From Moraxella porci DSM 25326 (GTDB taxonomy: Bacteria > Pseudomonadota > Gammaproteobacteria > Pseudomonadales > Moraxellaceae), in NCBI RefSeq assembly GCF_002014855.1, contig NZ_MUYV01000005.1:154080-218079 (forward strand): a stretch of DNA of 64,000 nucleotides, given 5' to 3'. The notes beneath the pieces are model-generated. The model did no database searches and was not told where the DNA came from. It saw only the letters and a program-made list of their open reading frames with translations. The position numbers and the translations under genes were made by a program. Position 1 is the stretch's first letter, and each line of letters begins with the position of its first letter. Shown here piece by piece: positions 2,852 through 12,522 of this stretch.

Positions 2852-3484
2852 ATGATGAAAAATATTAATCAAGCCACCACAGCGCTGATAGTGGTCGATG
2901 TCCAAAATGGCTTTATCACAGGCAATCTTGCGGTAAAAAATGCCGAACGCGTCGTACCGATCATTAATCAGCTTGCCAAACAATTTGAGCATGTGGTGAT
3001 GACTCAAGATTATCATCCTGCCAATCATATCTCATTTGCTTCTAATCATGCCGATAAGCAGCCATTTGACACTATCGTGCTCAAGTATGGCGAGCAAATT
3101 CTGTGGCCTGACCACTGTATTCAAGGTACGGATGATGCCAATTTTCATCCTGATTTGGACATTCCGCACGCGCAGTTGATCATCCGCAAGGGCCATCATT
3201 GGCAAGTGGATAGCTATTCGGGTTTTATGGAAGCTGATGGCACCATGACAGGGCTTGATGGCTATCTAAAACAGCGTGGTATCGATACGGTCTATGTGGT
3301 GGGGATTGCGACTGATTTTTGTGTGGCGTGGACAGCGATGGATGCCGCCAATCTTGGCTATCAGTGTACGGTGCTGATGGATGCGACTGCTGCCATTGAT
3401 CAAGATAGCTCACTACAAGCTGCCATCGATGATATGCAAGCGATGGATGTGGTGCTGGATTTTAGTAAATTTGCACAAGATTAA
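2852..3484 (+). CDS. pncA: Nicotinamidase
   Basis: PncA hydrolyses nicotinamide to nicotinate and ammonia for NAD salvage. The 210-residue protein has the isochorismatase-fold triad Asp16 ('VVDVQNG'), Lys113 ('IRKGHH') and Cys157 ('ATDFCVAW'). Metal-binding residues are Asp53, His55 and His88. Two ATG codons are adjacent (2852 and 2855); the first is used here. The gene begins 11 bp after fpr, so the two may be co-transcribed. Length and motifs match the family well. Confidence 0.93.
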   Translation: MMKNINQATTALIVVDVQNGFITGNLAVKNAERVVPIINQLAKQFEHVVMTQDYHPANHISFASNHADKQPFDTIVLKYGEQILWPDHCIQGTDDANFHPDLDIPHAQLIIRKGHHWQVDSYSGFMEADGTMTGLDGYLKQRGIDTVYVVGIATDFCVAWTAMDAANLGYQCTVLMDATAAIDQDSSLQAAIDDMQAMDVVLDFSKFAQD

Positions 3485-3677
3485 GCGCTCTTTTAGGTAC
3501 TCAGATAGAAGTCTTAATCGATATTTTATTAATTATATATTAATAAAAATATGAAAGCAAATAAAATCAAGCAAGCTGTCGGTCATTTTTGTGATGGATA
3601 GATGTTGATGGCTCTTTGATCGTCCGTACTTTAGCTTAAGCATTGGCCATCGGCTGATTAATCTTATGGCAAATGAC
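3485..3677. other. Intergenic region between convergent pncA and azlD
   Basis: This AT-rich 193-bp stretch lies between converging genes. I see no RNA gene, no convincing open frame and no strong terminator hairpin. Confidence 0.5.
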
Positions 3678-4034
3678 CTACAGCAAACCGTGAATCATCT
3701 CACCGATCAAAAACCCCACCATCCCGATAATCACACTCATGCCAGTGTTGATGCCGCGAGCGGTGGCAAGGATGGTGGCGATGATACCGCAGATGGTGGC
3801 AATCATCGGACTATGCTCAGTCGGCGCCTCAAAAAACGGCAGCATCAGCACCATCGTCATCGCAACGATGATCGCACCGCCAAGAGGCGCTAAGGGCGAA
3901 TTTTCGGCGGTAAAAAAACGAATGATGGGCGAATTATCAGGTAATAAAAACGGCAACGCACGAGACAAGGCGGTCAAAAAAGCCATCGCCACCACAGCAA
4001 TTACCAAAGTCGAAAAATTAGCTTGGCTAAACAT
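3678..4034 (-). CDS. azlD: AzlD family branched-chain amino acid transport protein
   Basis: AzlD is the small partner of AzlC; together they export branched-chain amino acids and analogues through the inner membrane. The 118-residue product has about four hydrophobic helices and the N-terminal 'TALSRALPFLL' pattern of the family. It begins 9 bp after the azlC stop, so translation is likely coupled. The substrate is inferred from the family, not from residues seen here. Confidence 0.88.
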   Translation of the reverse strand: MFSQANFSTLVIAVVAMAFLTALSRALPFLLPDNSPIIRFFTAENSPLAPLGGAIIVAMTMVLMLPFFEAPTEHSPMIATICGIIATILATARGINTGMSVIIGMVGFLIGEMIHGLL

Positions 4035-4043
4035 AGCTACCCC

Positions 4044-4736
4044 TTATCCTCTGATGCGATTGATGGCTAATTGCACAAGCACACCTGCAAAGCCCGCCAC
4101 CAGTAGCGCGATTTCTCCGTGTCCATAGCGTGTGCAGAGGATGGCAATCACCGCTGAAATGATCAGCGCCACGCGAAAGCGAGGCTCACTGATAAAAGCG
4201 TGCGTCGAGAGCGAAACGAATAACGCCACAAACGCAAAATTCATCACCGCACTCATCGTCGGATAATCAGCCAGTAGTTTGCCACCATAAATCCCTGCAA
4301 TCGTCCCGCCCCACCATGACACCCATGAGACGATGGCAAGCCCGATCAGCCATGGCTTTTGGTTGTCGATGTCTTTGAGTTTCGCCATCGCTGTGGCAAA
4401 GACCTCATCGGTAATCAGCGGCGCAATCCAAATCATGCCATCACTGGATTTGAGATGGCGTTTCATTAGTGGTACATATAACAGATGCCGAGAGTCGAGC
4501 AGGGCGCACAATCCGACCACTGCCGTCACGCTCGCACCGCTCATAATGGAGGCGAATAACAAAAACTGACTAGCGCCTGCATAAATAAACAAACTCATCG
4601 CCACAATCACCCAAGTGGGAAATCCTGCCGCCGTCGTCGCCATGCCAAAAGCGATCGCCACAGGAATATAGCCTAGCGCGATGGGTAGGGCGGCTTGACA
4701 GCCTTGGCGTAGTGCTTGTTGATTGGACTGGCTCAT
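4044..4736 (-). CDS. azlC: AzlC family amino acid exporter, large subunit
   Basis: AzlC is the main membrane subunit of an AzlCD exporter. The 230-residue protein starts with a short soluble segment ('RQGCQAALPIALGYIPVAIAFG'-like family start) followed by several hydrophobic helices. It contains the typical 'YAGASQFLL' and 'LLDSRHLLYV' motifs. It is the promoter-proximal gene of an azlC-azlD operon. A role in export of branched-chain amino acids is known for the family; the actual substrate here is not shown. Confidence 0.9.
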   Translation of the reverse strand: MSQSNQQALRQGCQAALPIALGYIPVAIAFGMATTAAGFPTWVIVAMSLFIYAGASQFLLFASIMSGASVTAVVGLCALLDSRHLLYVPLMKRHLKSSDGMIWIAPLITDEVFATAMAKLKDIDNQKPWLIGLAIVSWVSWWGGTIAGIYGGKLLADYPTMSAVMNFAFVALFVSLSTHAFISEPRFRVALIISAVIAILCTRYGHGEIALLVAGFAGVLVQLAINRIRG

Positions 4737-4868
4737 AATGATAAATCGATAAAAATCACTATTATAACCAAGTTTAATAAATTAGCAATATTTATCAAAA
4801 AGGCGATGACGGCTGTGGGGTTATTGTCATGCATTGAGCCGCATGATGATCTGATGCAAGATTTACAT

Positions 4869-5237
4869 TTAAAAAAATAAAATCAACGCCCAGACGATGG
4901 TTAAGGCTGATAATGACACAAACTGCGCAGCGCTGCCCATGTCTTTGGCGCGGCCAGATAAAGGATGATGCTCAGTGCTAACGCGATCAACCACCGCTTC
5001 GATGGCGGAATTGAACAGCTCAACAATAATACAAAACAAGCAAACAAAAATCATGAATGCGCGCTCAAGGGTGCTGACATCCAAGATAAAAGTCAATGGG
5101 ATAAGAACAAGATTAATCCAGATGATCTGGCGAAAAGCAGCTTCATGTCGATAAGCTGCAACAAATCCTGCCATCGAATAACCAAAGGCATTGATGATAC
5201 GGCGGATGCCAGTTTTGCCTTTTTGGGGTGAGTACAT
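4869..5237 (-). CDS. dgkA: Diacylglycerol kinase
   Basis: DgkA is a small trimeric inner-membrane kinase that phosphorylates diacylglycerol, recycling the lipid released when phosphoglycerol or phosphoethanolamine groups are transferred to envelope glycans. The 122-residue product has three transmembrane helices and the active-site signature 'ELFNSAIEAVVDR...KDMGSAAQ'. The ATG is preceded by a clear ribosome site (AGGAA, 6-nt spacing). It lies about 1.6 kb from the phosphoethanolamine transferase gene, whose reaction yields diacylglycerol; a functional link is plausible but inferred. Confidence 0.95.
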   Translation of the reverse strand: MYSPQKGKTGIRRIINAFGYSMAGFVAAYRHEAAFRQIIWINLVLIPLTFILDVSTLERAFMIFVCLFCIIVELFNSAIEAVVDRVSTEHHPLSGRAKDMGSAAQFVSLSALTIVWALILFF

Positions 5238-5265
5238 ATCAGTTCCTCATAAAATATAGCAAGCA

Positions 5266-5964
5266 TTAAGCAGTCTGAATACCAAAAAAATGCCCAATCA
5301 AACTGGTCGCAGCCAGAGCAACCACACCCCAGATCACCACACGAGCCATCGCAAGCATCTTATTGGCACCGCCCAGATGCGCTGAGAGCATGCCCAGTAG
5401 CGCAAGTCCTACCAATGTCGCGATCCATAAGGCTGTGATGCGCATCGGCTGAGGTGCCGCATAAACGCACAATAGCGGTAAGATCGCACCCATCACAAAT
5501 GACGCTGCCGACGCCAGTGCGGCTTGTAGGGGATTGGCAGACAGATCCTCATTTAGTCCGATCTCATCGCGTGCATGCGCTTGTAGTGCATCGTGTTTGG
5601 TCAGAGCTTCAGCGACTTTGGCAGCAAGATCGGCATCCAGACCTCTGGACTGATAAATTTGGGTCAGTTCTTTTAGCTCATTGTCAGGGTTGTGCATCAG
5701 CTCATATGCTTCTTTGGCAAGATCGGCCTTTTCGGTGTCTGCTTGCGATGACACGGAGACATATTCACCAGCTGCCATACTGATCGCACCAGCGATGAGT
5801 GATGCCACACCAGTCAAGATCAGCGTCTGCTCACTGCTGCCTGCAGCAGCAACACCCATCAGTAGGCTTGCGGTGCTGATCAGCCCGTCATTGGCGCCCA
5901 ACACTGTGGCGCGCAGCCAGTTATTACGATTGCTAAAATGAGGTTCGGGATGGGTGCTTCTCAT
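5266..5964 (-). CDS. VIT1/CCC1 family metal transporter
   Basis: The protein belongs to the VIT1/CCC1 (DUF125) family, membrane proteins that move Fe(II) or Mn(II). It has the N-terminal 'HFSNRNNWLRATVLGANDGLIS' region, the 'SMAAGEYVSVSSQADTE' motif, a hydrophilic central part and about five hydrophobic helices. The start at 5964 fits the family N-terminus and has an AGG ribosome site; a second ATG 27 bp upstream lies right next to a TATACT element that may be the promoter -10. The gene is followed by dgkA. Substrate metal is not determinable from sequence. Confidence 0.87.
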   Translation of the reverse strand: MRSTHPEPHFSNRNNWLRATVLGANDGLISTASLLMGVAAAGSSEQTLILTGVASLIAGAISMAAGEYVSVSSQADTEKADLAKEAYELMHNPDNELKELTQIYQSRGLDADLAAKVAEALTKHDALQAHARDEIGLNEDLSANPLQAALASAASFVMGAILPLLCVYAAPQPMRITALWIATLVGLALLGMLSAHLGGANKMLAMARVVIWGVVALAATSLIGHFFGIQTA

Positions 5965-6039
5965 GATGATTACCTGTGATAAGTATGACATTAGTATAAC
6001 ATAGGGTAGCGTTAAGTGTTTGAATGTTGATCAATCGGT

Positions 6040-6130
6040 TTAGGTCATACTGCCAGATCTGTGAAAAAATAACAGTGCCAAGCTTCCTGCGATCAGCCAA
6101 GCTGTGCATAAAGATGCTAAGGCATGACTG
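6040..6130 (-). pseudogene. Displaced 3' end of the PAP2 gene
   Basis: In the frame shifted by one base after the T5 tract (A5 on the plus strand, 6131-6135), translation continues for 29 to 30 residues beginning 'FSHALASLCTAWLIAG' and ending at a TAA at 6040-6042. This is just the expected end of motif 3 plus a last transmembrane helix. Its preservation suggests a recent or reversible one-base change. Confidence 0.75.
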
Positions 6131-6767
6131 AAAAATGATCGCCAATCAGCATCTTATAGCCGCCCATGACAAACCCAAGCATCGTGGTGATGAGGATAAT
6201 TTTTTTGCGATGATGACTAAATTCAGGCACAAAAGCAAAGGCATACAGTGCAAAACCGACACTGGCATGAGCAGCAGGAAAGCATTTGGCAGGTAGGCCC
6301 AAAATCATACTTTGTATCAAAGAAACATAAGGCAAATCCCCACCAAACACATCAAGACTGACAGGACAAGCGACATGAGTCACCGCCTTTGCTATTCCAA
6401 CCACCAATGGCGTACTCACAAGTGCCAAGCTTAAATACGCCAAAGAGTGTGTGGATAGATGGCGACAAGGATAAAACACGCCAAACTGCCGCTTGAGCTT
6501 TCTGACCAGATAAGCTGCGATGATATAAATCTCTAAAGCAATCAAAAGGTATTTTGGTGCAGTATAGAAAATGATAAATAAAGCCGTATTTTGCTTATCA
6601 ATCAGCCACTGCCCATCGCCTTGATATGCCAACCTAGCCAGTGACAGATCGATCATACTATGCTCAATAAACAGCGAGGTGACCACCAATAGCACCAGCA
6701 TGATCCAGATGCTGACCATCAGATTACGCGTAGTTATGGCTGTATTAGAAGATGAACGATGGAGCAT
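6117..6767 (-). CDS. PAP2 family phosphatase, frameshifted near its 3' end
   Basis: The product is a PAP2 (type 2 phosphatidic acid phosphatase) membrane protein, a family that removes phosphate from lipid phosphates or pyrophosphates at the periplasmic face. Visible motifs are 'GIAKAVTHVACP' (motif 1 region), 'FPAAHAS' (motif 2) and 'GGYKMLIGDHF' with the catalytic His of motif 3. The frame closes six residues later (216 residues). Adding one T in the run at 6131-6135 restores 'GDHFFSH' and a final membrane helix, giving 242 residues. It starts 48 bp after the mcr-like gene in the same direction, the same order as mcr-1 and pap2. Either the gene is truncated, phase-variable, or one base is missing in the assembly. 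Confidence 0.85.
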   Translation of the reverse strand: MLHRSSSNTAITTRNLMVSIWIMLVLLVVTSLFIEHSMIDLSLARLAYQGDGQWLIDKQNTALFIIFYTAPKYLLIALEIYIIAAYLVRKLKRQFGVFYPCRHLSTHSLAYLSLALVSTPLVVGIAKAVTHVACPVSLDVFGGDLPYVSLIQSMILGLPAKCFPAAHASVGFALYAFAFVPEFSHHRKKIILITTMLGFVMGGYKMLIGDHFSVMP

Positions 6768-6815
6768 GGAACACCTTGATCAACAAAATTAATAAAATGA
6801 TTAAAATTCAATGAC

Positions 6816-8438
6816 TTATTCGATAAACATCGCTTGGTTTTCCGTCGCTTTGGTCTTGACATCAAATAAACGCAGCAAAGTCGGCGTGATGGCATCATGA
6901 GTTAATGGTGCTTGATTGCTTACTGCATGGATGGCTGGGTTTGCTGTCCATAAAAATGCAGCAACATGCTTTTGAGCTTTGGGAGCAAAGGTGTTTGGCA
7001 TACCATGCAAATACACGCCATTTTCACCCAAGCTTTCACCGTGGTCGGATACATACAATAGGGTGACATCATGGCTGGCTTGATGTGTTTTTAGCCAATC
7101 GATGGTTTGTTTTAAAAAGTCATCGGTTGCCACCAAGGCATTGTCATAGGCGTTGATTACATGGCTGGTATCGCATTTGGCCAGATCGTTATCACGGCAG
7201 ACGGGCGTAAATTTTTCAAAGGCTTCATTATAGCGTTTATAATAAGCTGGCCCGTGGTTGCCCATTTGATGCAGCACGATCAGCACATCTTGATTGCTGT
7301 TTTTGGCGGTTTGTGCCACATAGTCATCCAGTCCGATCAGCATGCCAATGTCGCGGCATTCTTGATGGGCGTTGGTGCACTCATGATTAAGATCAGAGGT
7401 TTTATAATTTTGATACAAATCGGCAGGGAGCTTATCCATCACACCTTTGGAATCCGAATTATTATCACGCCACAGAACATTCACACCCAAGCGATGCAAG
7501 GTATCTAGGCTGTTCTCATGATAATTGGCGGTATCAACATTATAGTCATCTGCACCCAAATAGCTGAACATGCAAGGTACAGAATATGCGGTTGATGTCC
7601 CACAGGATATGACATTTTTAAAACTGGTCAGATGATCCATGCTGGATAACTGCACAAAAGTGTCTTTTGAATAGCCGTTTAATGACACATGATCAGCGCG
7701 AGCCGTCTCACCGACCACCATTACAATAAGCTTAGGTTTTCGTTGGGTGCTTGTAGTGGTCTGCGCAGCATCTTTGGCATGATAAGTTAGGTCTTTTGGA
7801 GCGGTAGCTTTTTTATATTCGATGCTGGCAAGCTTGCCGACGGCATAGATTGGCATGGCAGGATTGGTATAAGAACGCAGCGGTTTATGCTCTCTAAAAA
7901 AGCTGGCAAAAGCCTCGCTAAAGCTTAAAATCGGCACCAAAATCAAACCTAGGCTCAATAATAAATATCCTAATCTTTGAAATGCGTTGGTTTTAAAATT
8001 GGCAAAATGAACTGGCAGCTTTAAAATCAGTAAACTTGGTAACACGCCCAATAACAGTATGCGCACCAAAAAGCCTAAGTTAAGTAGATCTTTGGTTTCG
8101 CTGCTGTCGGTTTGTAGAGCGTTTTGTAGCATATTGGTGTCATACACCGTGCCATAAGTGTCGGTAAAATAACTGGTGATGGCGGCAACCATGATCATAA
8201 AGATCAAAACAAATTTTAGCGTATATCGATAGCTAAACAAGCCAATCACAAGTGCTAAAACACCGCATAACACCACTGTCAATGAAGCAACAAATAACAA
8301 ATGATCTGCAATGGGATAAACCAAAACCACCTGCTTAAAAAAAGTAACATTGGCACTAATGGTTAAAAATACGGCGACAATCAGCATTAGTAAATATGGG
8401 TTGATTGAGCGGTGTTTTGGGTGAAGGAAGTTAAGCAT
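6816..8438 (-). CDS. eptA (mcr-like): MCR-1-like lipid A phosphoethanolamine transferase
   Basis: This inner-membrane enzyme transfers phosphoethanolamine from phosphatidylethanolamine to lipid A, the reaction behind MCR/EptA-type polymyxin resistance. The 540-residue protein has five N-terminal membrane helices and a periplasmic alkaline-phosphatase-like domain. Metal and catalytic residues are all present: Glu244, the acceptor Thr283 in 'CGTSTAYSVPC', His395, Asp465-His466 and His478. Six cysteines (279/289, 354/361, 414/422) match the MCR-1 disulfides. Long blocks such as 'TSYFTDTYGTVYDT' equal MCR-1 as I remember it. Start at ATG 8438 gives MCR-1 length (541) and sits about 29 nt after the predicted transcription start; a TTG at 8459 is rejected. 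pap2 follows. No mobile element flanks it. Resistance phenotype is inferred. Confidence 0.94.
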   Translation of the reverse strand: MLNFLHPKHRSINPYLLMLIVAVFLTISANVTFFKQVVLVYPIADHLLFVASLTVVLCGVLALVIGLFSYRYTLKFVLIFMIMVAAITSYFTDTYGTVYDTNMLQNALQTDSSETKDLLNLGFLVRILLLGVLPSLLILKLPVHFANFKTNAFQRLGYLLLSLGLILVPILSFSEAFASFFREHKPLRSYTNPAMPIYAVGKLASIEYKKATAPKDLTYHAKDAAQTTTSTQRKPKLIVMVVGETARADHVSLNGYSKDTFVQLSSMDHLTSFKNVISCGTSTAYSVPCMFSYLGADDYNVDTANYHENSLDTLHRLGVNVLWRDNNSDSKGVMDKLPADLYQNYKTSDLNHECTNAHQECRDIGMLIGLDDYVAQTAKNSNQDVLIVLHQMGNHGPAYYKRYNEAFEKFTPVCRDNDLAKCDTSHVINAYDNALVATDDFLKQTIDWLKTHQASHDVTLLYVSDHGESLGENGVYLHGMPNTFAPKAQKHVAAFLWTANPAIHAVSNQAPLTHDAITPTLLRLFDVKTKATENQAMFIE

Positions 8439-8453
8439 AAGACACCATGGGCG

Positions 8454-8471
8454 ATCCAAAAAAAATTGGAT
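8454..8471. repeat. Inverted repeat at the mcr-like transcription start
   Basis: ATCCAA (8454-8459) and TTGGAT (8466-8471) form a perfect 6-bp inverted repeat around six A/T bases, lying on the predicted transcription start. It could be an operator or a small leader hairpin. Confidence 0.5.
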
Positions 8472-8473
8472 GC

Positions 8474-8482
8474 ATTATATCA
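8474..8482 (-). promoter_or_regulatory. Extended -10 promoter of the mcr-like gene
   Basis: On the minus strand the sequence TGATATAAT is a perfect extended -10 element. No good -35 is visible, which is common for extended -10 promoters. Predicted transcription start is near 8467, leaving a leader of about 29 nt before ATG 8438. Confidence 0.65.
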
Positions 8483-8697
8483 CAGCTGCCTTAAATAAAT
8501 GAAGCTTAAATTTATCTCAAATGCGCAATAACTTTATGCCTAAAATCAGCCATCAATCATCGCAGTCAAGGATAGTCATGATAAAGCAGGCTCGGCGTAT
8601 TTTGGGCGAGCATATCATCGGGTGTCGTCTGTCCAAGTCGGCTAGTGCATCAAACAGGGTGATGGCGATACCAATACCAAAGCATTATTGATTGTAG

Positions 8698-8703
8698 TAT
8701 AAT
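8698..8703 (+). promoter_or_regulatory. Candidate -10 box of the secreted-protein gene
   Basis: A perfect TATAAT lies 41 bp before the ATG at 8745. The matching -35 is poor, so only the -10 is called. Confidence 0.45.
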
Positions 8704-8744
8704 ACAGTCTTTAATTATGATAATTGAATTGGTGGAAGTTTGAT

Positions 8745-9638
8745 ATGTTTAAAAAATTCATGGCATGGATGCTGATTGCCTTGCCCTTATGTGCATCAGC
8801 CAATGACATTTTGCTATCAAAGGCAATATTTGATTTGGCACCTGTAGCGTGGCAGATGGAGGATGTGGCACAGGTGGATCGATCGCATTACCAAAAGCGG
8901 ATGCTCACTTGGCAAACAGGAGGCGGTCAGGTGATGGTAGATGAGCATTATTTTGCCAAAGAGCCAGTATTTACTCAGCAGGATATCATCAGCTCTGAGT
9001 TGGGTGTGAATGAATTGGGATTTTTATCAGCATTCGTCAAAGTCACCCCTCAAGCAGCCATACGCCAAGAAAAAGCCACCCAGCAAGCACTAAAATCAGA
9101 TCGAGGCAGTGCACATCTTTCTATCGTGGATGAATCTTTTACCAAAGTATATGGTACATTGAGCTTGTATGTGCCAATCGATGGTGATGAGTTTGTGCTT
9201 AGCTTGACTGATCCACTGCTATTATCCACGCATCAAAACTTACAGTTCGTGCTGTCTGAGTATGTCCCAACAGACGGCTATACGCTCAAAAGTATCACTC
9301 GCATTCCACCACCTGAATCCATACAGCATCCAGTGTATGTTGCAGATTGGGGAATCAATCAAGACGACATCAAACAGCTCGCCATCATCAATCAAGGCGA
9401 TATGTATGGCATCGGGTCGGGTGCCTATATGCTCGTAGCGACACTCAAGCCATCAGCGATCGCCAAAAAAGATGCGTTGATGTTTGATACCAGTGTGGGT
9501 TTGATGATTCATCATCCGCACAAGTCGTTTTGGCATGATTTTGCACCAAGTTATGAAGTTCAGCTTGCTTTGCCGGATAATCAAATTGCCATTGCGATGA
9601 GTTTTGAGCCTTCTATACTGACATCATTGTTTGAATAA
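8745..9638 (+). CDS. Secreted protein of unknown function
   Basis: I do not recognise this 297-residue protein. It starts with a clear signal peptide (positively charged 'MFKKF', a hydrophobic core, cleavage expected after 'CASA') and has no later membrane segment, so it should be periplasmic or exported. The mature part is rich in beta-type sequence and lacks cysteine pairs and known catalytic motifs. ATG 8745 is preferred over an upstream TTG (8724) because it begins the signal peptide and has GGAAG at proper spacing. It diverges from the mcr-like gene and converges with argS. Confidence 0.8.
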   Translation: MFKKFMAWMLIALPLCASANDILLSKAIFDLAPVAWQMEDVAQVDRSHYQKRMLTWQTGGGQVMVDEHYFAKEPVFTQQDIISSELGVNELGFLSAFVKVTPQAAIRQEKATQQALKSDRGSAHLSIVDESFTKVYGTLSLYVPIDGDEFVLSLTDPLLLSTHQNLQFVLSEYVPTDGYTLKSITRIPPPESIQHPVYVADWGINQDDIKQLAIINQGDMYGIGSGAYMLVATLKPSAIAKKDALMFDTSVGLMIHHPHKSFWHDFAPSYEVQLALPDNQIAIAMSFEPSILTSLFE

Positions 9639-9669
9639 AATTATCCCCAGTGCTAGACTGGGGGTAATT
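9639..9669. terminator. Bidirectional hairpin between the secreted protein gene and argS
   Basis: AATTATCCCCAGT (9639-9651) pairs with ACTGGGGGTAATT (9657-9669) over 13 positions with one wobble pair and a 5-nt loop. The stem is strong but T-runs are weak on both sides. It lies between converging genes. Confidence 0.65.
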
Positions 9670-9681
9670 ATCTGAATTAAT

Positions 9682-11409
9682 TTACATCTTCTCAACGGTC
9701 TTGATGCCAAGTAAATCAAGACCTTGCTTAAGCGTCTTGGCGGTGAGATTGGCAAGCAGTAGGCGGCTGGTTTTGGTTGGCTCATCGGCTGTTAGGATTG
9801 GACAGGCTTCATAAAAGCCTGAGAACGCACCTGCCAGCTCAAACAGATATTGGCAGAGCAGATGTGGCAGTCCATCTTTGGCGACGGCGAGTAGCACTTC
9901 TTCGAACTGCAATAATTTCACCGCCAAAGCGCGCTCTTTATCATCAGTGATGCTGATTTGACCTGCAAGCGTATCGCCATCCACACCCGCTTTGGCAAAA
10001 ATCGAGCGAATACGAGTATAAGCGTACTGCATATACGGAGCGGTGTTACCCTCGAACGACAGCATATTATCCCAATCAAACACATAGTCGGTATTGCGAT
10101 TTTTTGACAAATCGGCATATTTGACCGCACCGATGGCGACAGCATCGATGACTGCTTGCTTTTTGGTATCATTAAGTTCGGTGTTTTTGTCATTGATTAA
10201 GACAGTAGCACGCTCGATGGCTTCATCTAGCAGGTCGTTTAATTTGACCGTGCCGCCAGTACGAGTCTTGAACGGCTTGCCGTCTTTGCCAAGCATCATC
10301 CCAAAGGTAAAATGCTCAAGGCTGAATGACTCAGGCACAAAGCCTGCCTTGCGAGTGATGAGCCATGCCTGTGCCATGTGCTGTGCTTGACGAGCGTCGG
10401 TAAAGACCAACGCACGATCGCCCTGCAAGGTCTCATAGCGGTATTTGGCAGCGGCGATGTCGGTGGTGGTATATAGATAGCCGCCGTCTTTTTTCTGGAT
10501 GATGACGCCCATCGGCTCACCGTCTTTGTTTTTGAATTCATCCAAAAATACCACGACAGCACCATCATCTTCGACCGCAAGACCTTTGTCTTTGAGTGCT
10601 TGCACCACGACAGGCAGCATCGGATTGTATAGGCTTTCACCCATGACATCATCAGGTGTCAAAGTGACATTCATACGCTCATAAGTGGCTTGGCACTGCG
10701 TCATGGTGATATCGACAAGCTTACGCCACATACTTAAGCAGTACTCATCACCGCTTTGGAGTTTGACGACATAGTTACGAGATTTCTCGGCAAAGGCTTC
10801 ATCATTATCATAATTTAGCTTAGCTTGACGATAAAACTCTTCGATGTCAGACAAATCCATATCGGTGGCGTTTTCGTTTTGCATCTTTTCAAGATAAGCA
10901 ATCAACATACCAAACTGCGTACCCCAGTCACCAACATGATTGGCACGAATCACGGTATTGCCTAGAAACTCAAGCGTACGCACGACGCTATCACCGATGA
11001 TGGTGGAGCGTAGATGACCGACGTGCATTTCTTTGGCGACATTTGGTGATGAATAGTCCACGACCACGCGCTGATGTTGGTTGGCATTCACACCCAGTTT
11101 GGCATCGCTATTGGCGACCGTAGTGCTATTTTCTATCCATTTATTATTTAAGAAAATATTGATAAATCCCGCACCAGCGATTTCTACTTTACTGGCGATA
11201 TCGCTGATGTCTAGCACATCGATGACGCTTTGGGCGAACTCACGAGGATTTTTGCCCAGTTTTTTGGCAGCGCCCATGATGCCATTGGCTTGATAATCGC
11301 CAAACTGTGGCTTGCCAGACTGACGCACGAGCGCTTGGACATTGCTGTCTGCACCTGCACTGATCATGGCTTGTGTGATTTTGTCATTTAAAAGTTGTTG
11401 AATATTCAT
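9682..11409 (-). CDS. argS: Arginyl-tRNA synthetase
   Basis: ArgS charges tRNA-Arg with arginine. The product shows the class I signature as '[21 protein letters not shown]' (HVGH for HIGH), the N-terminal tRNA-binding domain and the C-terminal DALR anticodon-binding domain ending '[10 protein letters not shown]'. In place of a canonical KMSKS it has '[16 protein letters not shown]', which is normal for ArgS. The start at ATG 11409 ('[10 protein letters not shown]') agrees with the family; an in-frame ATG at 11427 would add six residues and has no better ribosome site. Length is about 575 residues, usual for the family. Confidence 0.97.
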
Positions 11410-11543
11410 AATTTTATGCTTATCCATAAAGAAAATTGGACGATATTGGATGATAATTGGTGAAATTTAAACCACAGTATTTTAGCAAATTTTCCACAAA
11501 AAATCTTAGGCGATTGAGCATGATTTGGGATAAATTAGCTGTA

Positions 11544-12188
11544 TTAACCAAAATACAGTCGATGAGCATAAATCGCCAGATTAAAGGCGATAAGCCACAT
11601 GACTAATGCGATCAAGGCATCCAAGATCCGCCAAGTGATGGGCTTTTTGAATAATGGAATGAGTAGGCGTGCGCCATAACCCAAGCCAAAAAACCAACTG
11701 GCAGAAGCCAGCAGCGCGCCTGCCAAAAATAGCCAGCGCCCATCTGGGCTCAGTGTACTGGCAACCCCACCGATGATGACCACAGTGTCAAGATAGACAT
11801 GCGGATTTAATAGCGTCAATGCCAGTGTGGTACCGATGGTGGCGGCTAGGGTGGTGGCTTTTGGGCTGGCGTCGATAGACAGTGCGCTATCGCCACGAAA
11901 GGCACTCATCAAAGCACGAAAGCCATATACGGTCAAAAACAGCGCGCCAACCAAAGCCAAGGCGATGGTGGCCATCACACTTTGCGCGATCAAAGATCCC
12001 ATGCCGAGTACGCCGATGCTGATGAGTATGAAATCGCACAAAAAGCAGGTGAGCACCACCCAAAACACATGGTTCTTTAGTAGGCCTTGTTTTAGTACAT
12101 AAGCATTTTGGGCGCCGATGGCTACGATCAAGCCGCCAGAGACCAAAAAGCCTTGCACAAACACTGGGTTTAATACGCTGTAGGACAT
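11544..12188 (-). CDS. LysE/ArgO family amino acid exporter
   Basis: The 214-residue membrane protein has the LysE family N-terminus 'GFLVSGGLIVAIGAQNAYVLKQG' and about six hydrophobic helices. LysE/ArgO proteins export basic amino acids such as lysine and arginine. It stands alone on the minus strand between argS and the tRNA-Ser genes. Closeness to argS may be chance. Substrate is inferred from the family. Confidence 0.9.
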   Translation of the reverse strand: MSYSVLNPVFVQGFLVSGGLIVAIGAQNAYVLKQGLLKNHVFWVVLTCFLCDFILISIGVLGMGSLIAQSVMATIALALVGALFLTVYGFRALMSAFRGDSALSIDASPKATTLAATIGTTLALTLLNPHVYLDTVVIIGGVASTLSPDGRWLFLAGALLASASWFFGLGYGARLLIPLFKKPITWRILDALIALVMWLIAFNLAIYAHRLYFG

Positions 12189-12260
12189 GATGCCACCAAA
12201 TCAAAAACAGTCTAAGCCAAATTACCGTGCGTCAGTCACAGATGCTGCACAAACAGATAT

Positions 12261-12294
12261 AAAATCGCCCAAATCCAATGCGGACTTGGGCGAT
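12261..12294 (-). terminator. Terminator of the tRNA-Ser unit
   Basis: On the minus strand ATCGCCCAAG-TCC pairs with GGA-TTTGGGCGAT around a GCATT loop, followed by TTTTAT. It lies just downstream of the second tRNA-Ser. Confidence 0.8.
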
Positions 12295-12300
12295 CAATAA

Positions 12301-12391
12301 TGGCGGAAGCTGAGAGATTCGAACTCTCGGTGGGCTATAAACCCACGCCGGTTTTCAAGACCGGTGCATTCAACCGCTCTGCCAAGCTTCC
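12301..12391 (-). tRNA. tRNA-Ser (UGA), second copy
   Basis: The 91-nt sequence folds as a class II tRNA: acceptor GGAAGCT/AGCTTCC, encoded CCA end, long variable arm, T-arm 'GTTCGAATC', and an anticodon loop CTTGAAA giving anticodon UGA. It is identical to the copy 40 bp upstream. Confidence 0.95.
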
Positions 12392-12431
12392 GTAAGCGGT
12401 ATTCATCACAAGGATGATAAAATCAGAATAA

Positions 12432-12522
12432 TGGCGGAAGCTGAGAGATTCGAACTCTCGGTGGGCTATAAACCCACGCCGGTTTTCAAGACCGGTGCAT
12501 TCAACCGCTCTGCCAAGCTTCC
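12432..12522 (-). tRNA. tRNA-Ser (UGA), first copy
   Basis: Same 91-nt sequence as the gene at 12301-12391, with anticodon UGA and encoded CCA. It is promoter-proximal in a two-gene unit with a 40-bp spacer. Confidence 0.95.

What the first reader, a model, noticed from the sequence alone, without database searches (positions are those of the whole stretch)
6040..8482. Native mcr-like / pap2 locus without mobile elements
A phosphoethanolamine transferase with all MCR-1 catalytic residues and six matching cysteines is followed directly by a PAP2 gene, the same order as the mobile mcr-1-pap2 cassette. The neighbours (dgkA, VIT transporter, argS) are ordinary chromosomal genes, and no ISApl1-like end is seen. 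This looks like an intrinsic relative of the source locus. Membership of the MCR-1 lineage is judged from remembered sequence, not a calculated identity.
Basis: partly seen in the sequence, partly recalled or inferred. Interest (0 to 1): 0.72.

Follow-up and report, generated by a model that had tools for sequence, protein, structure and literature searches.

The report
Moraxella MCR-like gene, interrupted PAP2 partner
A Moraxella-type chromosome stretch carries a relative of the colistin-resistance enzyme MCR-1 with its usual PAP2 partner gene, but it belongs to a separate branch, sits in a different place from the known mcr-1 locus, and its partner gene looks broken, so it is a new cousin of a known family and not the source of mcr-1.

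Summary
The observation largely holds: window 6816-8438 (-) encodes a 540-aa phosphoethanolamine-lipid A transferase. Of 24 MCR-1 positions compared, 23 are the same, including all six cysteines. A PAP2 gene follows after 48 bases, then VIT and dgkA; argS lies on the other side; no ISApl1 piece was found. Corrections: (1) The protein is 63% identical to MCR-1.1 and forms its own clade with four metagenomic proteins, outside the MCR-1/2/6 clade. Grouping it with MCR-1 alone is rejected (AU p 0.0002); a sister position to the whole clade is not (p 0.23). (2) The gene order is not diagnostic: pap2 follows eptA in 20 of 114 loci, Campylobacterota included. (3) The site differs. Two genomes with close argS (95%, 92%) carry mcr beyond azlD on the opposite strand; here the pair lies between argS and VIT, beside a 25-codon remnant of a flavin reductase gene that is whole next to argS in those two. 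Best reading: separate chromosomal acquisition that replaced that block. The PAP2 frame closes early, unlike 29 of 29 relatives aligned. New member of a known kind.

The parts
6816..8438 (-). eptA/mcr-like phosphoethanolamine-lipid A transferase, 540 aa (ORF open from a TTG at 8459)
6117..6767 (-). pap2, PAP2-family (lipid A phosphatase-like) gene whose reading frame closes early (216 aa)
6040..6135 (-). stretch with weak homology to the missing PAP2 C-terminus, in another frame
8556..8630 (+). 25-codon remnant of the 3' end of a RutF/HpaC-like flavin reductase gene
   Evidence: 41.6 bits; best of 200 shuffles 20.4
8724..9638 (+). unidentified 304-aa ORF; no Pfam or NCBIfam match, no match in 22 genus genomes or in plasmids
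9682..11427 (-). argS, flank
5266..5991 (-). VIT-family transporter gene, flank
4869..5237 (-). dgkA, diacylglycerol kinase, flank, same strand as the pair
4044..4736 (-). azlC, flank; 93% (G001) and 91% (G016) protein identity
3678..4034 (-). azlD, flank (named from its place beside azlC and recall); in G001 and G016 mcr lies beyond this gene

Best explanation
This is a chromosomal accessory gene pair of a Moraxella species. The transferase takes phosphoethanolamine from phosphatidylethanolamine onto an active-site threonine and passes it to a lipid A phosphate, which lowers the surface charge and would raise polymyxin tolerance (inferred from conserved residues and relatives). The PAP2 partner would normally trim lipid A phosphate and so prepare the acceptor (inferred); here its frame is interrupted at the last conserved motif, so it is probably inactive if the break is real. 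dgkA, two genes below pap2, could recycle the diacylglycerol left over (inferred). The pair is a sister or cousin line of MCR-1/2/6 and was acquired at this site separately, replacing a flavin reductase - metE - DUF1852 block of which 25 codons remain.
For: Family and domain hits; 23 of 24 MCR-1 positions kept; solved full-length MCR-1 aligns over residues 16-546. Own clade 100/100 beside the MCR-1/2/6 clade 100/100. Gene order: window argS-X304-eptA-pap2-VIT-dgkA-azlC-azlD; G001 and G016 argS-flavin reductase-metE-DUF1852-azlC-azlD then mcr on the opposite strand (pap2 in G016 only); G024 argS-VIT and G006 argS-dgkA, no close eptA in either. Flavin reductase remnant next to eptA; among 18 argS loci fetched only G001 and G016 have that gene there. 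Close eptA in 2 of 22 and pap2 in 1 of 22 genus genomes.
Against: The window is mosaic against G001: other stretches are as diverged in DNA as eptA at 70% (ydcF-murB 68%, VIT 69%, tolB region 67%), so low eptA identity alone does not prove foreign origin. GC of eptA (42.5%) is the lowest of 24 genes chosen, but its third-position GC is only third lowest. No element or clear target repeat marks the edges. A sister relation to MCR-1/2/6 is not rejected, and in the best tree the window clade groups with MCR-1/2/6 plus P0007 and P0020, without support (38/88). The order of events rests on one short remnant and few genomes. No activity was or could be measured.
Confidence: 0.72

Rival explanations
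1. One reading: an intrinsic, vertically inherited relative of the mcr-1 source locus, displaced by local rearrangement.
For: Both loci lie near azlCD and argS; a sister relation of the two protein clades is not rejected, and the best tree puts them on one side of an unsupported branch; other window stretches are as diverged from G001 in DNA.
Against: Other side of azlCD and other orientation, so more than one rearrangement is needed; no homologue of this closeness in 20 of 22 genus genomes; flavin reductase remnant at the edge; grouping with MCR-1 alone rejected.
Confidence: 0.17
2. An ordinary housekeeping lipooligosaccharide phosphoethanolamine transferase with little effect on polymyxins.
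For: The wider group is common in the family (86 of 348 genomes at E <= 1e-120), and in 94 of 114 loci no pap2 was found next to it (some loci are cut short or duplicated).
Against: 23 of 24 MCR-1 positions kept, all six cysteines; the M. osloensis enzyme ICR-Mo gives polymyxin resistance in E. coli (PMC5983563, abstract and passages); that the 62.7% identical protein of L046 is of that kind is my inference.
Confidence: 0.25
3. The PAP2 break is a sequencing or assembly error and the pair is intact.
For: A 97% identical relative of full length exists (P0121); the break looks like a single frame change; 29 of 29 relatives aligned are not broken there.
Against: Nothing here shows an error; some pap2 beside mcr-2 are reported truncated (PMC10285318, passages) and none was found in G001, so losing it is not unusual.
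Confidence: 0.4
4. A mobilised mcr cassette recently landed here from a plasmid.
For: Pair of the same order as the mcr-1-pap2 unit.
Against: No ISApl1 piece; of 2432 plasmid records with a match the best-ranked is 63.7% identical and none is in a band above 80%.
Confidence: 0.02

Closest known systems
Unnamed metagenomic proteins P0001-P0004 (EptA) with P0121-P0125 (PAP2)
   Different: Their PAP2 runs on where the window's stops; genomic site unknown
MCR-1 / MCR-2 / MCR-6 of Moraxella and plasmids
   Same: Catalytic residues, six cysteines, pap2 downstream in mcr-1
   Different: 63% identity, separate clade, other chromosomal site; no ISApl1 here
Moraxella osloensis-type enzymes, ICR-Mo (L046/L088, L087, L089; that these are of the ICR-Mo kind is inferred)
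   Same: L046 protein 62.7% identical; pap2 match downstream in all four loci
   Different: Other clade; genomes outside the genus set of G001; their PAP2 was not checked for intactness
EptA of Psychrobacter
   Same: Same protein family, about 50% identity
   Different: No adjacent pap2 found in the Psychrobacter loci

Membership tests
Phosphoethanolamine-lipid A transferase | NF028537 score above cut-off; EptA_B_N plus Sulfatase domains | tested here: met
   693.5 against 500 bits; both Pfam domains
Phosphoethanolamine-lipid A transferase | Metal-binding and nucleophile residues and disulfide cysteines of MCR-1 | tested here: met
   23 of 24 positions identical, all six cysteines; roles recalled
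Phosphoethanolamine-lipid A transferase | Adds phosphoethanolamine to lipid A; polymyxin resistance | not testable with these tools
   needs an assay
MCR-1/2/6 family | NCBIfam MCR-1, MCR-2 or MCR-6 cut-off | tested here: not met
   783 against 1100; 776.4 against 1200; 796.3 against 1235
MCR-1/2/6 family | About 80% protein identity (threshold as in PMC10285318, passages) | tested here: not met
   63.1% MCR-1.1, 62.6% MCR-2-like, 63.1% MSG47-C17 protein
MCR-1/2/6 family | Falls inside the clade | tested here: not met
   separate clades 100/100; grouping with MCR-1 alone rejected p 0.0002, sister position to the whole clade not rejected p 0.228; other nestings were not tested
Native Moraxella mcr-1 source locus | recombinase gene (ssr) - mcr - pap2, next to azlD | tested here: not met
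   mcr beyond azlD in G001 and G016; between argS and VIT here; ssr from PMC10228737, and that the 794-aa ORF of G016 is ssr is inferred
Mobile mcr cassette (Tn6330) | ISApl1 at the ends | tested here: not met
   only chance-level matches
PAP2_near_MCR1 (NF028536) | score 475 | tested here: not met
   164.5 bits; the full-length relatives P0121-P0124 188-205
PAP2 family lipid A phosphatase (NF028538) | score 275 | tested here: not met
   225.7 bits; the full-length relatives P0121-P0124 251-266, near but under

The most novel reading that the evidence does not exclude
The argS-azlCD neighbourhood of these Moraxella is a chromosomal landing zone where different mcr-type eptA-pap2 units were taken up more than once by replacement, so mcr-type genes were already moving between Moraxella chromosomes before ISApl1 captured mcr-1; the window keeps the scar of one such event.
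Probability: 0.3. Interest if true: 0.5.

Novelty: new member of a known kind. Interest (0 to 1): 0.32.

Why it matters
[quoted passage not shown] If the replacement reading is right, Moraxella chromosomes exchanged such genes without insertion sequences.

Tried and rejected
ISApl1 remnants: BLAST at word size 7 and the transposase, chance level only. Flanking repeats: 18 direct families and 9 inverted pairs, none that I judged to be element ends. Promoter and terminator scan: 11 promoter-like sites against 9.9 in shuffles, 2 terminator-like against 3.3, so not used. Viral contigs: no relative. X304: no match in plasmids or in 22 genus genomes. GC as evidence of foreign origin: weak, dropped. 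Structure prediction was not run, because a solved full-length MCR-1 aligns over nearly the whole protein. The third protein search was not used.

Full report
What is there. The window's ORF at 6816-8459 on the minus strand is a phosphoethanolamine-lipid A transferase: 693.5 bits against NF028537 (cut-off 500), Pfam EptA_B_N and Sulfatase. The closest relative, P0001, is 540 aa and aligns from the window's internal ATG, which puts the likely start at 8438. Against the MCR-1.1 of an E. coli plasmid (L001), 339 of 537 aligned residues are the same (63.1%); against the MCR-1-like protein of G016 337 of 535, the MCR-2-like protein of G001 336 of 537, the protein of Moraxella sp. MSG47-C17 (P0011; I recall it as MCR-6.1) 339 of 537 and the M. 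catarrhalis protein (P0045) 322 of 536. Of 24 MCR-1 positions that I chose from recall, 23 are identical, including the six cysteines; Q114 is S. The best solved structure is full-length MCR-1, 9nww, aligned over residues 16-546.

The partner gene. A PAP2 ORF (6117-6767) follows after 48 bases on the same strand. It is 43% identical to the PAP2 of G016 and fails both NCBIfam PAP2 models: 164.5 of 475 and 225.7 of 275. The full-length relatives P0121-P0124 stay under both too, so the branch is distinct from PAP2_near_MCR1. The window's frame closes early: in an alignment with 29 database relatives (P0121-P0149, of 57 found) and the G016 protein, all 30 run on beyond the GDHF motif and the window alone stops. 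Weak homology to the missing end appears in another frame (E 0.016). P0121, 97% identical, is of full length (242 aa). Whether the break is real or an assembly error cannot be told here.

Not inside the MCR-1/2/6 clade. From 120 listed EptA relatives (7998 found) I took P0001-P0064 and eight Psychrobacter proteins, with the window, three mcr proteins and six loci, into a quick tree of 82 rows; 43 of those rows went into a careful tree. The window sits with P0001-P0004 (99, then 100/100), and MCR-1/2/6 form another clade (100, then 100/100). In the careful tree P0007 and P0020 are nearest to MCR-1/2/6 (91/92, not starred). Holding the window clade with MCR-1 alone is rejected (p 0.0002). Holding the window clade and the MCR clade together is not rejected (p 0.228). 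In the best tree the window clade, the MCR clade and P0007/P0020 are already on one side of a branch, without good support (38/88). So it is outside the clade but may be its near sister. The window clade has a three-residue insertion not seen in the other 13 proteins of alignment A1, and a one-residue gap in the second cysteine loop that P0006 has too. NCBIfam MCR-6, MCR-1 and MCR-2 models give 796, 783 and 776 bits against cut-offs of 1235, 1100 and 1200. A published delineation uses 80% identity (PMC10285318, passages). Among 2432 plasmid records with a match none is in a band above 80%.

Gene order is not diagnostic. Of 114 loci with an eptA match (L001-L114), 20 have a pap2 match within 600 bases downstream on the same strand: three mcr-1 copies (two plasmids, one Actinobacillus chromosome), G016, L046/L088, L087 and L089 (M. 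osloensis-type, inferred), M. atlantae L068/L090, 'Dichelobacter' L074, and nine MAG loci, eight of them Campylobacterota by title (Sulfuricurvum, Sulfurovum, Sulfurimonas, Sulfurospirillum, Helicobacteraceae). Some loci are the same genome twice, some are cut at contig ends, and the list is dominated by Psychrobacter, where no adjacent pap2 was found. The pair is therefore wider than mcr-1.

The site. No whole genome of the window's source is held. Of 348 family genomes, the closest by argS are G001 (95%, the genome behind L003, an uncultured Moraxella MAG) and G016 (92%), then G006 and G024 (82, 81%). G016's contig is 2,336,058 bases, the chromosome length given for Moraxella sp. FZFQ2102 with mcr-1.35 (PMC10228737, passages); the identification rests on that length and the mcr-1-like gene. 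Taking argS as forward, the orders are: window argS, X304(-), eptA, pap2, VIT, dgkA, azlC, azlD, then pncA-fnr-nuoN(-); G001 and G016 argS, flavin reductase(-), metE(-), DUF1852(-), azlC, azlD, then [pap2(-) in G016; a short ORF in G001], mcr(-); G024 argS, VIT, three small ORFs, azlC, azlD, fnr(-), nuoN(-); G006 argS, dgkA, pncA(-), fnr(-), nuoN(-). The flavin reductase is RutF/HpaC-like, under those models' cut-offs; the methionine synthase is above its cut-off; the names DUF1852, azlD, pncA, fnr and nuoN are recalled. The paper says that mcr in Moraxella lies between a site-specific recombinase gene and pap2, which fits G016 if its 794-aa ORF is that gene. The window pair is thus on the other side of azlCD and in the other orientation.

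The scar. Between eptA and X304 the window keeps 25 codons of the 3' end of the flavin reductase gene (8556-8630; 73% identity over 26 columns, E 1e-6; 41.6 bits against 20.4 for the best of 200 shuffles). Of 18 argS loci fetched (14-20 kb each) only G001 and G016 show that gene, although 16 of 22 genus genomes have it somewhere at E <= 1e-30. The simplest order of events is that the ancestor shared with G001 and G016 had argS-flavin reductase, and that eptA-pap2 later replaced most of that block in the window's line. No remnant of metE or DUF1852 was found in 3000-12500 at E <= 0.1. In the genus, a close eptA is in 2 of 22 genomes (two more at about 35%) and pap2 in 1 of 22: accessory, not intrinsic to the genus.

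Against this reading. Window DNA is mosaic against G001: argS 89%, azlCD 86%, nuoN-fnr-pncA 85%, but mfd 76%, ydcF-murB 68%, VIT 69%, tolB region 67% and eptA 70% (covering 39,401 of 64,000 bases). So low identity by itself does not mark eptA as foreign; the position and the scar do, and they rest on few genomes. GC of eptA is 42.5%, lowest of 24 genes that I chose, with third-position GC third lowest.

How it would work. Inferred, not shown: phosphoethanolamine goes from phosphatidylethanolamine to the threonine equivalent to MCR-1 T285 and then to a lipid A phosphate, as proposed for ICR-Mo (PMC5983563, abstract and passages). PAP2 has been proposed to turn bis-phosphate lipid A into the form that the transferase accepts (PMC7559476, passages). 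dgkA, two genes below pap2 on the same strand, could recycle the diacylglycerol; but VIT lies next to argS in G024 and dgkA in G006, both without a close eptA, so the link may be accidental. With PAP2 interrupted, the transferase would act alone, if the break is real.

Literature seen. PMC10228737 (passages; section 18), PMC5821093 (passages: mcr-1 mobilisation from a Moraxella close to MSG13-C03), PMC7559476, PMC10285318 and PMC5983563 (passages). Four text searches; in their listings I saw no report of this branch or site, but the listings were partial, most subscription papers are not held, and PMC5890717 was not held.

Noticed in passing
window 8724-9638: 304-aa ORF with a signal-peptide-like start (by eye), no Pfam or NCBIfam family, no match in 22 genus genomes or in plasmids; it lies between argS and the flavin reductase remnant.
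   Followed up: partly
window 12304-12391 and 12435-12522: Two tRNA genes with equal scores side by side; two copies also match at the corresponding place in the G006 and G024 loci (96 of 96 bases each in G006).
   Followed up: no
L133 (G001) 8563-8868: Where G016 has pap2 next to azlD, the MCR-2-like genome has a short channel-like ORF, and no pap2 was found in that genome.
   Followed up: partly
L046 / G215: A contig named Streptomyces cinereus JCM 3040 carries a Moraxella-type eptA-pap2, and a genome with a contig of that length is in the family set of G001, so the record name looks wrong; L074 named Dichelobacter nodosus also has a Moraxella-like protein.
   Followed up: partly
L004 8001-10390: Actinobacillus sp. 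GY-402 carries an mcr-1-like gene with pap2 on a chromosome record.
   Followed up: no
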